The position numbers and the translations under genes are program-made. This document shows, piece by piece, positions 28,101 through 34,100 of a DNA stretch of 64,000 bases. The stretch's first letter is position 1. Every line of letters starts with the position of its first letter. Location: contig NC_057861.1 of the NCBI RefSeq assembly GCF_019393635.1, forward strand, positions 57,549,532 through 57,613,531, written 5' to 3'. Origin of the DNA: Dromiciops gliroides (lineage: Eukaryota; Chordata; Mammalia; Microbiotheria; Microbiotheriidae). The notes beneath the pieces were generated by a model. It was not told the DNA's origin and did no database searches. It saw only the letters and a program-made list of their open reading frames with translations.

Positions 28101-31100
28101 GACTGTGCCTAGTGATTGTGCTCTACATAGTCACCATCATAAGCAAACCATGGACTTACATATACCTGTCTCTCCTTTTGTTGCACATATATTCTCTCCA
28201 GGGCCTGCGTCAGAGTTCACAGCAAGTTAGTCTCTGAAATGATAAGTTTCCATATTTCTGAAATCTCATTAATTTCACCAAAGACAATATGATGGTAAAA
28301 ATGTGTGCTATGCTGCATAACTGAGAATATATTAGTGATATATACAATAATTCCAAACCATACCCAGAGTATAATGACATATAAATAATAAACGAATGTA
28401 AATAGCTGATTATATTAGACATTGTTACATAATCTTCTTTTAGCAAGTAGACCACATCATCTTATACATGAATTCTCTAGTATAACAGTAGCAGATACTT
28501 AAAGTGGTGATTAATTCATCAAAAAGAAGTAAGACTTCAATAAGCAAGATTCAATATTCAATAGCATATACTTAAAATGCCTTTGAAAAGTCACTTAGTT
28601 TACAAAATCGGGTTTTTAAAGAAAAGCAAAAGAAACAAAAGTAAAAAAAAAAAAAACAAAGCAAAACCAAAAACCCAAAAATAAAAGGCAAAAGATTCGC
28701 TAAGCACCCTTTTGTGCTCTTAAAGAATTTAAAGGTGTGGTGAATTCCAGGTCTTTTCAGTGCCTTTCAAAAGTCAAAACAAAACAAAAAACAAAAAGGA
28801 TTAAAAAAAAAAATAGGTATAGGGTAGGGAAAAGGGTGGGAGAAATTGAGGTGGGCCAGAAAACTAGGCCATGTGCTTCAGTGCTTTTGCCTGTGGAAGG
28901 AAATGCTTGTTAAATTTTAAGGTATTTAAGCTGCTAGAGTTTGGGGTATGCCACATTGTTTTAACTGGTTCCCCAATTCTCTGCATGCCAAAGTGGCAGG
29001 GGTTTCTGAATTGTCATTGATCTTTCTAATGCTGTCATAATGTTCTTTATGGTAGAAAATGTGGAGTTCTCTAGCATCAGTTTTGTCTGTGCCACTGATT
29101 TTCAATAAGGGCTGATTTAATTGATGAACCACAACATTCAGCTGATGCTGCTTAGCAAATGCTACAATTGTATCATTTCCTCCCCACTTTCCAAATTTCT
29201 TTAATTCATCAACATATTCTTCAAAAGGGGAGTCATTTACTATAAAAGACTCAAACTCATGTCTATGGTTAATCATATAAGAAGCAGCTTCTTGTCTGTG
29301 TCTGAGATGATTTCTACAGTGACCTTCTAGCTGGTCTGCTAAAGCCCTAAAAAGGCAATTTCCGTCTCCTGATACTTTACGAAGACTGAGTCCCAAAGCA
29401 TTTAACTGATCAGTGGGATTATTAAATGGGAACTGCCTGTTTCCTCTGAACTTTCTTTGCTCTTTAACAGTTGCTATCGTTAGGGTTTTTACCTCTTTAG
29501 CGTCTACCTCAGGTCTATCTGAAATCTCTTCACCTATGAATGGTGCAGGCTTTATATGAGAGCAATGAATCCATGAGTCTTTTTCACCAATTTTAATGGC
29601 AGTAGGAGTTGTCAATAATACCTGAAAAGGTCCTTCCCAGGCAGGTTGAGTTCCACTGGTTCTCTGAAAATTCTTTACATATATTTTATCTCCTGGGTTG
29701 AAGTTATGCAATGAAAAGTCTAATGGTCCTGCCTGGACCACAGCTCCTGCCTCATGGAGTTCACGTAGCCTGGTCTGTAATTCCTGTATATAGGAAGCAA
29801 CAGACGTATCACCTCCCACCAGTGATGTATAAACTGGGGAAAAAGTTTTAGCTTGGATAGGAGGGTGACCAAAAAGCATTTCATAAGGAGATATATGAAG
29901 TTCTCCTCTTGGTCTATTTCGTAGATAGAATAATGCCAATGGTAGAACATCAGGCCATTTCAAATGGGTTTCAGTACATAATTTGCCAATCATACTCTTA
30001 AGCTCTTTATTCATACGTTCGACTTGGCCTGAACTTTGTGGATGGTAGGGCGTGTGGAATTTTGGAGTCACTCCCAAGAAAGAGTAGATTTGGGATAAAA
30101 TCGAATCAGTGAAATGTGTGCCTTTGTCAGAATCGATGAGGGCTGGTGGGCCAAAACGAGGTACTATCTCTTTAAGAAGAATTTTGGCAACAAAGGCAGC
30201 TGTGGCTCGGGGGCTGGGAAAGGCCTCCACCCACCGAGTGAGCTGATCAACTATAACAAGGCAAAATTTATAATGTCCTGCTTTTGGCATAGTAATATAA
30301 TCAATTTGTAAGTGCTCAAAAGGTGTATATGCTAGAGGACGCCCTCCATAAGCTTTGGCCTTAAAAGCATACTGATTATAAGACTGACATGTGGAGCAGC
30401 CCGAGCAGATTCGAGATGCTGTATTAGTCACACCTGGTGCTATCCAGGTTCTCTTAATAGAGTCTACAATGCCTTGTGTACCAAAATGGCCTTTTCTGTG
30501 AACAGAGAGGCATACCTGGTGGTAGAATTTCCAGGGAAGAAATGGCTTACCTTCCGGAGACCCCCAGATGCCATTGATCTGTTTCGCCTTAAATTTCTTT
30601 TTCCACTTTTCTACTTCAGAATCGTCATAGGTTAGGTTGGAAGGAATATCCTCAGAAGGTGAAAGGTTAAATACATGTTCAGGAGCTTCTAATGCAGCAA
30701 GCTTGGCTGCAGAATCGGCTCGTGCATTTCCCTTTGAAACAGGGTCACTATTCCCTGTGTGGGCAGGGCAATGTACAACGGCTAGGGAAGAAGGCAGTTT
30801 TAGGGCATCTAAGAGGTCCTTGATAAGGTCCCCATTGGCAATAGCCTTGCCCGAGGATGTTAGAAAGCCTCGTTGACGCCAAATCATACCAATAAAGTGG
30901 CATATGCCAAAGCCATATTTCGAGTCAGTAAAAATGGTGGCACTCTTATCTTTAGCTATATTACAGGCCTGTGTAAGAGCCACAAGTTCAGCAGCCTGTG
31001 CACTAAAATGGCAAGGCAGAGAAGCTGCCCAGAGGGTGTCATAATCAGAAACTACAGCAGCTCCAGTAAAACGGGTTCCCTCTCTCATAAATGAGGAACC

Positions 31101-34100
31101 ATCTGTATAGAGGACAAGATCAGGATTTTCTAAAGGTGTATCAAAAAGATCATCACGGGGTTTTTCAGCCATATCAACTAAAGAAGCACAGTCATGCAAC
31201 GGTTCCCCCGAGAATGGTAAATTAGGGAGTAGTGTTGCTGGATTAAGAACTGTGCAGCGTTTTAAAGTGATATTCTCATTACCTAACAGGGTTATTTCAT
31301 ACTTAGCCAGCCTTTGATCTGAAAAGGCTTGTGTCCTGTGACGTAGTAAGAGAGCCTCCACTTCGTGAGGGCATTGCACAGTTAGAGGGTTACCTAGGAC
31401 CAAATCAGAGGCTTTTTCTACCAAAAGCGCTGTGGCCGCCACTGCTCTAAGGCAAGGTGGCACTCCAGCCGCTACAGGGTCCAGCTGAATTGAATAGTAG
31501 GCTATAGGACGCTGGTTAGGCCCCAGTGACTGAGTCAGGACTCCAGAAGCCACCCCCCTTTGTTCATGCACAAAGAGAGTGAAAGGCTTACTATAATCTG
31601 GCAGTCCTAGGGCAGGTGCTGATAACAAGGCCCGTTTTAATTCTTTTATGGCTGAGAGATGCTGGGGATCCAACTGTAAACTGTCTGGAACAGAACTTTT
31701 TGTAAGAGCTATGAGGGGTTTAGTAATTTCACCAAAAGAGGGTATCCATTGTCTACAGTACCCGGCTGCTCCTAGAATGGCTCTCAACTGCCTCTTAGTA
31801 GTGGGGGCAGAGAGTTGTTGAATGGCCTGGACTCGCTTAGAAGAGACAGAGCGAGTTCCAGCAGCCAAAATAAATCCTAAATATTCTACCTGGGGCAAAC
31901 ACCATTGTACCTTTGTCTTGGAAACCTTGTGTCCTCTCTTGTGCAGCTCCAGCAGTAAGTGACGGCTATCTTCCTGACAAATTTCAGCATTAGGAGAGGC
32001 CAAAAGTAAGTCATCAACATATTGTACTAGTGTGGAGGCTTTAAAGGTAATAGAGGCCAGATCCTGCTGTAAAATTTGGGAAAATAATGTGGGACTGTCT
32101 ACAAATCCCTGTGGGAGTCTAGTCCAGGTCCACTGTCTATTTTTCCAGGTAAAAGCAAATAAATATTGGAAGTCCTCATGTACTGGTATGGAGAAAAAGG
32201 CAGAGCAAAGGTCTACCACTGTGAAACATGTAGATTCATAGGGAATTGAGGAAATTATCATAGCCGGATTTGCGACTATAGAATGTCTAGGAATAACATA
32301 ATTATTAATCGCTCTAAGATCTTGCACAAAGCGATAAACAGGTTTACCATCTGGCCCAGGCTTGGGTTTTTTAACTGGCAAAATGGGAGTATTGCATGGA
32401 GAGTGATGACATGGAATAATAATACCCTGGCTTTTCAAAGCCTCAATTATAGGGGTGATCCCTTCTATTGCTTCCCTAGACAATGGATACTGTGGAATGG
32501 AGGGGGGTGGTCCCCCCTTAACTTTAAAGGTAACAGGCATGGCAGATTTAAGGAGCCCCACCTCATTAGGGGATGAGGCCCATAAAGACTCAGGAATGTC
32601 AGAGGGGATTTTGGATACCTCCCCTGCTGTTCCTTGAGCTTCTGTAAGTAAAATTGGTAATAAATGAACAGTATCCTCTGGCAATTGTAAGGAGACAGCC
32701 CCATCTGGAGCACAAGATATGGTTGCTCTAAGCTTGCAAAGGAGATCACGACCTAATAAATTTACAGGGGCATCAGGCATGAGTAAAAATGAATGTTCTA
32801 CTGTTAAGGGCCCCATAGATACCATGCGAGGATTCAATTTTGCCACTCTCTGGCTCTTTCCTGAGACTCCCACTACATTCAAATATCCTACAGGTCTACA
32901 CCCAGCATCTGGTTTGCTTACTAATACTGATTTAGAGGCTCCTGTGTCTAGCAGACAATCATAATAAGTCTCCCCCACTTTTAAGGTGACATGTGGTTCA
33001 TTACTCTGGGGAGGTGAATGGACTGGCACAAGTGCATTCAAAAAATCCGGATCTGGGAATATATGGCTTTCATTATCTATGTTCCATTCCTCCCCAAGAC
33101 ACCATCAGAAGAGGACACAAAGGACAAGGGGCATCTAGGTGGTATAGTAGATAAGGCACCGGCCCTGGATTCAGGAGGACCTGAGTTCAAATCTGGCCTC
33201 AGACACTTGATACTTACTAGCTGTGTGACCCTGGGTAAGTCACTTAACCCTCATTGCCCCACCCCCCCAAAAAAGAGAGAGATAGCAAAGGACAAACAAC
33301 AAATGGAGAGACAAGCAAGAAGGGGGAGGCAGGGAGGGCACCAGACTTTTATGAAGAAAAGAAATTACTAAGGACCAGGCTGAGCTCTAGATTATTTTTG
33401 AACTGTGATCACCCTCAGATTTATAAGATCACAGGATGTAGAATTGGAAGGAAACTCAAATCATGTAGGCCCAGCTCACCCCCCCCCCATTTTACAGATG
33501 AGGAAGCTGAGACCCAGAGAGAAGACATGTTCAAGATAATAAATAACACAGTCAAGATTTGAACCCAGATCTTCTTACTCCAGAGTCAGAGTCCTTCCTA
33601 CATACCAAACTTCTACTCACTTATTAGTTTCTTTTACTTCACTTGTATTTTCAATTCAACAATCCTTTATTATTTTCCCTGAGATCATCCTCCACCAGGG
33701 AAACAACATGGCATCATGAAAAGAACCTGGGTTTGAATCTTGCCCCCACCGATTGGTCAAGTCACTTTACTAACTTGAGCCTCAGTTTCATCATCTGACA
33801 AGTGGGACTAGAAATATCAACACTATCACCTTCACAGGGTGAAAATTCAATGAGTTAGCATATGGAAAGTACTTTGCAAATCTTTAAGGGTTGTCTAAAT
33901 ATCAGTTATTATTCTCACCAGTCCCCATGCCCAGTCTGTTGTATTTGAGGGATTTGGGGGAGACTGAATGCCCATGAACGCTGACCCTGCTCTGAGTCAG
34001 TGCCTTCCTTTTTCTAGATTCAGAACCAGAACAATATGAAGTACATTGTCGCCATCTTGAAGAGTGAAGAACTCTGTCTACAAAAGCTTGCAGAGATTTC

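What the first reader, a model, noticed from the sequence alone, without database searches (positions are those of the whole stretch)
28926..33041. Retroviral Pol fused in frame to a host-derived OTUD3-like deubiquitinase domain
Seen: one open frame of about 1371 codons with protease, RT, RNase H and integrase motifs runs without a gap into a full OTU domain with GDGNCLFRAL and EHYDSIRKINDNSE. Known: retroviruses have captured host genes (oncogenes, dUTPases), and some Ty3-type elements carry extra domains; I know of no vertebrate retrovirus with an OTU protease at the Pol C terminus. Inference: capture of spliced OTUD3 mRNA created a new kind of retroviral protein. Many unrelated viruses use OTU proteases to strip ubiquitin or ISG15 and blunt innate immunity, so a similar role is possible.
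Basis: partly seen in the sequence, partly recalled or inferred. Interest (0 to 1): 0.96.

Follow-up and report, generated by a model that had tools for sequence, protein, structure and literature searches.

The report
Retroviral polymerase gene with captured deubiquitinase
A retrovirus fossil in an intron of a (probably marsupial) host gene carries an unbroken polymerase gene whose end is fused to a ubiquitin-removing enzyme domain apparently taken from a host gene; it has been seen here at a single place only.

Summary
One uninterrupted minus-strand frame (33104-28926, 1392 codons) encodes protease, RT, RNase H, integrase and an MLV-type integrase tail, followed in frame by an OTU domain. 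The OTU is 60-67% identical to tetrapod OTUD3 (PDB 4bou, E 3.7e-59), with catalytic D, C, H kept. It sits where env would be, upstream of a polypurine tract and a 531-bp LTR; a 4-bp target duplication flanks the element. 5' LTR and gag are missing and no env is recognisable. The element lies antisense in a PLVAP intron. The OTU differs from tetrapod consensus at 49 of 142 residues, yet changes avoid invariant sites (8, against 19 expected; 0 of 2000 neutral runs as low), so it stayed constrained while diverging. The closest Pol relatives found (Monodelphis, 71-73%) end without OTU. The donor's clade is unresolved. A second locus could not be sought (genome search did not complete). Best reading: an OTUD3-capturing retroviral lineage whose Pol delivered a deubiquitinase. 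Host-gene capture by ERVs is known; an OTU at Pol's C terminus did not appear in our paper listings.

The parts
26871..33119 (-). Retroviral element, 5'-truncated: minus strand starts TGTG at 33119 and ends CACA at 26871
   Evidence: Junctions and TG...CA ends read
26867..26870 (.). 4-bp target-site duplication, low side (AAGG on +)
33120..33123 (.). 4-bp target-site duplication, high side (AAGG on +)
32718..33005 (-). Retroviral aspartyl protease (RVP), DTG kept
   Evidence: Pfam PF00077 E 3.8e-11; coordinates
31866..32342 (-). Reverse transcriptase, YVDD kept
   Evidence: Pfam PF00078 E 2e-24
30693..31121 (-). RNase H
   Evidence: Pfam PF00075 E 3e-22
30039..30527 (-). Integrase zinc-binding and catalytic core (H2C2 + rve)
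   Evidence: Pfam PF17921, PF00665
29544..29708 (-). MLV-type integrase C-terminal domain
   Evidence: Pfam PF18697 E 2.1e-16; local alignments 78-79% identical to Monodelphis Gag-Pol over 25% of the query region
29415..29543 (-). 43-residue linker; part of it aligns weakly with the OTUD3 N-terminus
   Evidence: BLASTP alignments to koala and frog OTUD3 run into it; those to Monodelphis and reindeer do not
28989..29414 (-). OTUD3-like OTU deubiquitinase domain, catalytic D, C, H kept
   Evidence: Pfam PF02338 E 1.6e-12; PDB 4bou E 3.7e-59; fold match
28926..28988 (-). 20-residue C-terminal tail and stop codon; no source identified
27414..28925 (-). About 1.5 kb without recognisable env
   Evidence: 18-29 stops per minus-strand frame, no CX6CC or ISD-like pattern; no Pfam hit above cut-off in the 4 ORFs scanned from this stretch
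27402..27413 (-). Polypurine tract
   Evidence: Sequence directly before the LTR
26871..27401 (-). 3' LTR, 531 bp, TG...CA, TATA-like and AATAAA signals, U3 with 2 x 39-bp perfect repeat (27235-27312)
   Evidence: no second copy in the window (BLASTN of the LTR)
26707..26859 (+). SINE older than the element (the element split its downstream TSD copy)
   Evidence: 6 of 125 sites from consensus
33128..33285 (+). SINE at the 5' edge of the element; order relative to the element unsure
   Evidence: TSD CAAAGGACAA at 33118-33127 and 33286-33295; 11 of 125 sites from consensus
21761..22201 (+). PLVAP N-terminal coding exon; the element lies downstream of it, antisense, before the next recognised PLVAP exon (36963-37814)
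   Evidence: Pfam PF06637 E 2.6e-56 and 8.8e-59; profile positions 124-154 are not accounted for, so a small exon may lie between

Best explanation
This is a 5'-truncated provirus of a class I (gammaretrovirus-like) lineage that captured OTU-encoding sequence from a vertebrate OTUD3 mRNA between pol and the 3' LTR, in frame with integrase. Shown: the fused frame, the OTUD3 relationship, kept catalytic motifs of every enzyme, LTR/PPT/TSD boundaries, and constraint on the OTU while it diverged. Inferred: while the lineage replicated, Gag-Pol carried the OTU into particles; it acted joined to integrase or after protease cleavage, removing ubiquitin (perhaps also ubiquitin-like modifiers) from incoming Pol/integrase or from RNA-sensing proteins such as MAVS and RIG-I, reported host OTUD3 substrates. 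With env unrecognisable, the lineage of this copy probably spread inside germ cells or with a helper. This copy, lacking 5' LTR and gag, is probably silent.
For: Fused frame and domains. OTU closest to OTUD3 in sequence and fold, with tetrapod OTUD3 in the tree (82/59). LTR, PPT and 4-bp TSD make pol+OTU one integrated unit. Constraint: 49 changes in 142 residues, only 8 at 55 far-invariant sites; neutral mean 19, 0 of 2000 as low; milder exchanges than neutral (P 0.014); 0 stops (neutral P 0.07). Related Monodelphis Pol (73% over 1111 columns) ends without OTU, so the OTU was added on this branch or lost there. Host OTUD3 acts on MAVS and RIG-I/MDA5 and depends on Cys76 and Lys129 (PMC10566363, passages); counting from the catalytic Cys in the alignment, the lysine is kept here too (my count, no call made it).
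Against: One locus only: 0 of 26, 0 of the 120 listed of 342 and 0 of 15 protein hits join Pol and OTU. The OTU tree position rests on one long branch (1.04) with modest support; in a first tree of 39 rows its place was open, next to the centipede row as well as tetrapods. Gag, 5' LTR and env are absent here, so the intact genome plan is unseen. A simpler constraint test gave only P 0.03, and in 400 neutral runs 25% kept the three catalytic residues and 9% had no stop, so those two facts alone prove little. The tail and most of the linker have no identified source. No activity data. Host OTUD3 also stabilises cGAS, which would not help a retrovirus.
Confidence: 0.78

Rival explanations
1. Host co-option: the Pol-OTU frame has been kept intact in the host genome by selection after integration, as a domesticated gene lying antisense inside PLVAP.
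For: 1392 codons without a stop although the element lost 5' LTR and gag. The SINE at its 5' edge shares a 10-bp TSD that includes the element's terminal CA, which favours a later SINE insertion, and that SINE is 8.8% from consensus; if so, about 7 stops would be expected at 5% neutral divergence.
Against: The U3 repeats are identical over 2 x 39 bp and LTR CpG content is high (O/E 0.66 against 0.07-0.17 in four flank stretches), which favours a young insertion; below about 2% divergence zero stops is unsurprising. The older SINE, which predates the element, is only 4.8% from consensus. No ATG before residue 73; promoters were not scanned for.
Confidence: 0.1
2. Passenger: the OTU was picked up recently by one provirus, has no role, and its divergence was mostly acquired in a fast-evolving host OTUD3-like gene or retrocopy before capture.
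For: A single locus; no other Pol-OTU protein among the listed hits.
Against: No host protein as close as 70% was listed (120 of 342 listed), and the tetrapod OTUD3 rows sampled are slow-evolving (end branches up to 0.13); a functionless passenger would show the constraint pattern only if all of it predates capture.
Confidence: 0.1
3. Assembly artefact, or a later insertion of an OTUD3 retrocopy into an old pol.
For: One sequence only; reads cannot be examined here.
Against: In-frame join without a stop; the TSD pairs across the whole element; the OTU is 34% diverged with constraint, unlike a fresh retrocopy; I saw no poly-A or short duplication at the OTU borders in the sequence read, though no tool tested for them.
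Confidence: 0.03

Closest known systems
Crocodilian ERVs that captured KIT-ligand (CrocERV29) and nectin3 (CrocERV31) mRNAs (PMC4299795, passages)
   Same: Host mRNA captured by an ERV lineage; nectin3 replaces env; purifying selection reported for the captured frames.
   Different: There the captured genes encode a ligand and an adhesion molecule; here an enzyme domain is fused in frame to integrase.
Ginger1 DNA transposons (PMC2836005, passages)
   Same: Integrase-like DDE transposase, in several families with a C-terminal OTU domain.
   Different: DNA transposons. Here RT, protease, LTR and 4-bp TSD are present and the OTU is OTUD3-type; Ginger1 OTU sequences were not compared.
Monodelphis Gag-Pol proteins A0A5F8GG34, K7E2C3
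   Same: Pol 71-73% identical over about 1100 residues.
   Different: They end right after the integrase C-terminal domain, without OTU.
OTUD3 (PDB 4bou)
   Same: OTU fold, catalytic residues, 60-67% identity to tetrapod orthologs.
   Different: Host OTUD3 has a long C-terminal region beyond the OTU, absent here.
Nairovirus OTU proteases (e.g. PDB 3phw, 6dx3)
   Same: Viral OTU fold; their PDB entries name them parts of RNA-dependent RNA polymerases.
   Different: 13-22% identity in the fold alignments listed; RNA viruses.

Membership tests
Class I (gammaretrovirus-like) ERV | Pol with protease, RT, RNase H, integrase and MLV-type integrase C-terminal domain | tested here: met
   all domains above Pfam cut-off
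Class I (gammaretrovirus-like) ERV | LTR with TG...CA ends, polypurine tract and 4-bp target duplication | tested here: met
   3' LTR only
Class I (gammaretrovirus-like) ERV | 5' LTR, primer-binding site and gag | tested here: not met
   No second LTR in the window; no gag Pfam hit in the 6 upstream ORFs scanned. Element truncated; not evidence of another family. The primer-binding site lies in the missing part
Class I (gammaretrovirus-like) ERV | Env with CX6CC and immunosuppressive motif | tested here: not met
   Neither pattern in three minus-strand frames of 27402-28925
Host-gene-capturing retrovirus | Intronless host coding sequence inside the LTR-bounded element | tested here: met
   142 uninterrupted OTU codons between integrase and LTR; that OTUD3 has introns here is recalled
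Host-gene-capturing retrovirus | Several loci sharing the junction | not testable with these tools
   The genome search unanswered
OTUD3 family deubiquitinase | OTU domain closer to OTUD3 than to other OTUs | tested here: met
OTUD3 family deubiquitinase | Catalytic Asp, Cys, His present | tested here: met
OTUD3 family deubiquitinase | C-terminal region of OTUD3 beyond the OTU domain | tested here: not met
   Alignments stop after the OTU; only a 20-residue tail follows
OTUD3 family deubiquitinase | Deubiquitinase activity | not testable with these tools
   Needs an assay
Ginger1 transposon | DNA transposon with integrase-like transposase and no RT (no RT: recalled) | tested here: not met
   RT, RNase H, protease, LTR present

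The most novel reading that the evidence does not exclude
A lineage of mammalian retroviruses or ERVs has, for a long time and in many copies, carried a functional deubiquitinase as a further enzyme of Pol, taken from OTUD3 and packaged in the particle, to protect incoming integrase complexes or blunt ubiquitin-dependent sensing; possibly some copies now serve the host.
Probability: 0.4. Interest if true: 0.88.

Novelty: new variant of a known kind. Interest (0 to 1): 0.72.

Why it matters
Retroviruses are known to carry dUTPases and to capture host genes, but no retrovirus with a deubiquitinase appeared in our paper listings, whereas nairoviruses do encode OTU proteases. A retroviral Pol with a host-derived, constrained OTU would give a natural test of whether removing ubiquitin from incoming integrase complexes or from sensors helps retroviruses, and would add an enzyme to the Pol repertoire. 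The link between integrase and OTU also parallels Ginger1 transposons, suggesting that the pairing arose more than once.

Tried and rejected
Tried without result: the window's own assembly by the genome search (same request, 9 times, never answered); the Pol-OTU junction in viral contigs and prokaryote genome contigs, an integrase piece in viral contigs: pattern matches but no confirmed relative; gag- or env-like domains in 10 ORFs: none above cut-off; RNA families: none; a second copy of the split host repeat to prove the empty site: none in the window. Promoters and splice sites were not scanned.

Rejected: Ginger1 membership (RT, LTR present); a fresh OTUD3 retrocopy inserted into pol (OTU diverged under constraint, TSD spans the whole element); the top hit (Mytilus OTUD3, 236 bits) as closest relative: it is 53% identical and, as read, repeats part of its OTU. 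Considered: the tail's last residues as a remnant of the OTUD3 C terminus; too weak to claim.

Papers: PMC2836005, PMC4299795, PMC10566363 and PMC11334065 seen as passages; all others only in listings. Not in print: listings (20 of 114 shown; 20 of 50; 12 of 24; 4 of 5) showed no OTU-bearing vertebrate retrovirus; the library is open-access only, and supplements were not searched.
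Full report
What is there. On the minus strand of the window one open frame runs from 33104 to 28926 (1392 codons). Pfam finds, in order, protease, RT, RNase H, integrase zinc-binding and core domains, the MLV-type integrase C-terminal domain and an OTU domain; all 10 matching families pass their curated cut-offs. The usual catalytic motifs (DTG, YVDD, acidic residues of RNase H, HHCC and D-D-E of integrase; motif names recalled) are present.

The OTU domain. It matches human OTUD3 in the PDB with E 3.7e-59, then OTUD5 at E 6.5e-10. 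Of 342 protein hits 120 are listed; all 120 carry the OTU domain in the precomputed Pfam column, most named ones are called OTUD3, and identities run from 60 to 67% except the top one, a mussel OTUD3 with 53% that repeats part of its OTU. An AlphaFold2 model of 176 residues (best of five, mean pLDDT 83; the others 69, 64, 59 and 44) matches 4bou with TM 0.93 by target length and 63% identity. The catalytic Asp, Cys and His are kept (named by analogy with OTU proteases); against tetrapod OTUD3 the domain lacks one residue just before the His motif.

Which OTUD3? Tetrapod OTUD3 hardly changes (end branches 0-0.13), while the window's domain sits on a branch of 1.04 (41 rows that I chose from the hits, 38 of them different). 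It groups with tetrapods at 82/59, unstarred. A clade with marsupials is not rejected (p-AU 0.246), nor with eutherians (0.558), mammals (0.466), fish (0.144) or sauropsids (0.106, though its log-likelihood is 10.65 lower). In a first tree of 39 rows its place was open.

Was it kept functional? Against the tetrapod consensus 49 of 142 residues differ. At 55 sites invariant also in 11 distant OTUD3 proteins only 8 changed. Random mutation of the same 142 codons to the same divergence gave 19 on average and in 0 of 2000 runs as few as 8; exchanges are milder than random (P 0.014); absence of stops alone is weak (P 0.07). A 2 x 2 test within sites fixed in tetrapods is weaker (8 of 55 against 20 of 61, P 0.029), and in 400 neutral runs 25% kept the three catalytic residues. 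The simulation starts from the window's own codons, without indels. The constraint may have acted in the virus, or in a host gene before capture; no host protein that close was listed.

The element around it. Downstream of the OTU stop lie about 1.5 kb with 18-29 stops per minus-strand frame and neither env pattern tried, then a polypurine tract and a 531-bp sequence with LTR traits: TG...CA ends, TATA-like and AATAAA signals, and a perfect 2 x 39-bp repeat (27235-27312). No second copy of it is in the window. Directly outside are the four bases AAGG (+ strand); the same four follow the other end of the element at 33119, where the minus strand starts TGTG. A 4-bp duplication is typical of gammaretroviral integration (recalled). 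At that end the 5' LTR and gag are missing: only TGTG is shared with the LTR start, which could reflect a later deletion at a short homology or an aberrant integration. Pol, OTU and LTR thus belong to one integrated unit, and the OTU occupies the env position.

Setting and age. PLVAP coding exons lie at 21761-22201 and 36963-37814 on the + strand, so the element is antisense in a PLVAP intron; about 31 profile positions between these exons are unaccounted for, so a small exon may lie in between. A TrmE_N (GTPBP3-like, name recalled) exon is at 58656-59300. The SINE at 26707-26859 predates the element, because the element split its downstream duplication; it is 6 of 125 sites from the consensus of 28 copies in the window. 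The SINE at 33128-33285 shares a 10-bp duplication that includes two bases of the element, which favours later insertion, yet it is 11 of 125 sites from consensus. This tension is unresolved. Identical U3 repeats and a CpG-rich LTR (O/E 0.66; four flank stretches 0.07-0.17; pol-OTU 0.26) favour a young element. Without selection, zero stops in 1392 codons reaches P 0.05 only at about 2% divergence, so the intact frame needs no host selection if the element is young.

Relatives. The nearest Pol proteins found are from Monodelphis: K7E2C3 73% over 1111 columns, A0A5F8GG34 71% over 1105; both end a few residues after the integrase C-terminal domain. Of the protein hits, 0 of 26 (candidate lengths about 754-2399), 0 of the 120 listed of 342 (about 163-518) and 0 of 15 (about 347-1102) join Pol and OTU. 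Annotation often masks proviruses (recalled), so this is weak evidence of rarity. That the host is a marsupial is inferred from these relatives and from recalled SINE types; no call names the species.

How it may work. Shown: a constrained OTUD3-type domain at the end of Pol. Inferred: as part of Gag-Pol it would enter particles at Pol stoichiometry and act joined to integrase or cleaved from it. Host OTUD3 is reported to remove K63 chains from MAVS, RIG-I and MDA5, depressing RNA-virus sensing, but to stabilise cGAS (PMC10566363, passages), which would be counterproductive for a DNA-making virus. So protection of incoming Pol/integrase from proteasomal turnover is at least as likely as immune evasion. 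I give the general packaged-deubiquitinase mechanism about 0.4.

Known context. Capture of host mRNAs by ERVs, in one case replacing env, with reported purifying selection, is described in crocodilians (PMC4299795, passages). Integrase-like transposases with a C-terminal OTU are described in Ginger1 DNA transposons (PMC2836005, passages). A survey of Australian marsupial ERVs has no occurrence of OTU or ubiquitin in its main text (PMC11334065, passages). The combination here is therefore a new variant of a known kind.

Noticed in passing
P0022, P0023 (Monodelphis MLIP isoforms): Predicted isoforms of muscular LMNA-interacting protein match this integrase C-terminal domain at 79%; in the one read (P0022) the stretch is at the end of the protein: a possible exonised provirus, or an annotation artefact.
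   Followed up: partly
window 33100-33300: The element begins TGTG right after its target duplication but lacks 5' LTR and gag; a deletion at a 4-base homology or an aberrant integration.
   Followed up: partly
window 27735-27812: 26-bp unit, 2.9 copies, in the non-coding stretch between OTU and LTR; origin unknown.
   Followed up: no
P0002-P0021: Unnamed proteins of 771-1206 aa whose only precomputed Pfam domain is OTU, 51-58% identical to the window's; in the one read whole (P0002) it is N-terminal. Source organisms unknown.
   Followed up: partly
window 21761-39297 (+) and 58656-59300 (-): PLVAP exons and a GTPBP3-like TrmE_N exon.
   Followed up: partly
P0147 (Ranitomeya variabilis): Frog protein with a 58% identical integrase C-terminal stretch: related proviruses may occur in amphibians.
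   Followed up: no
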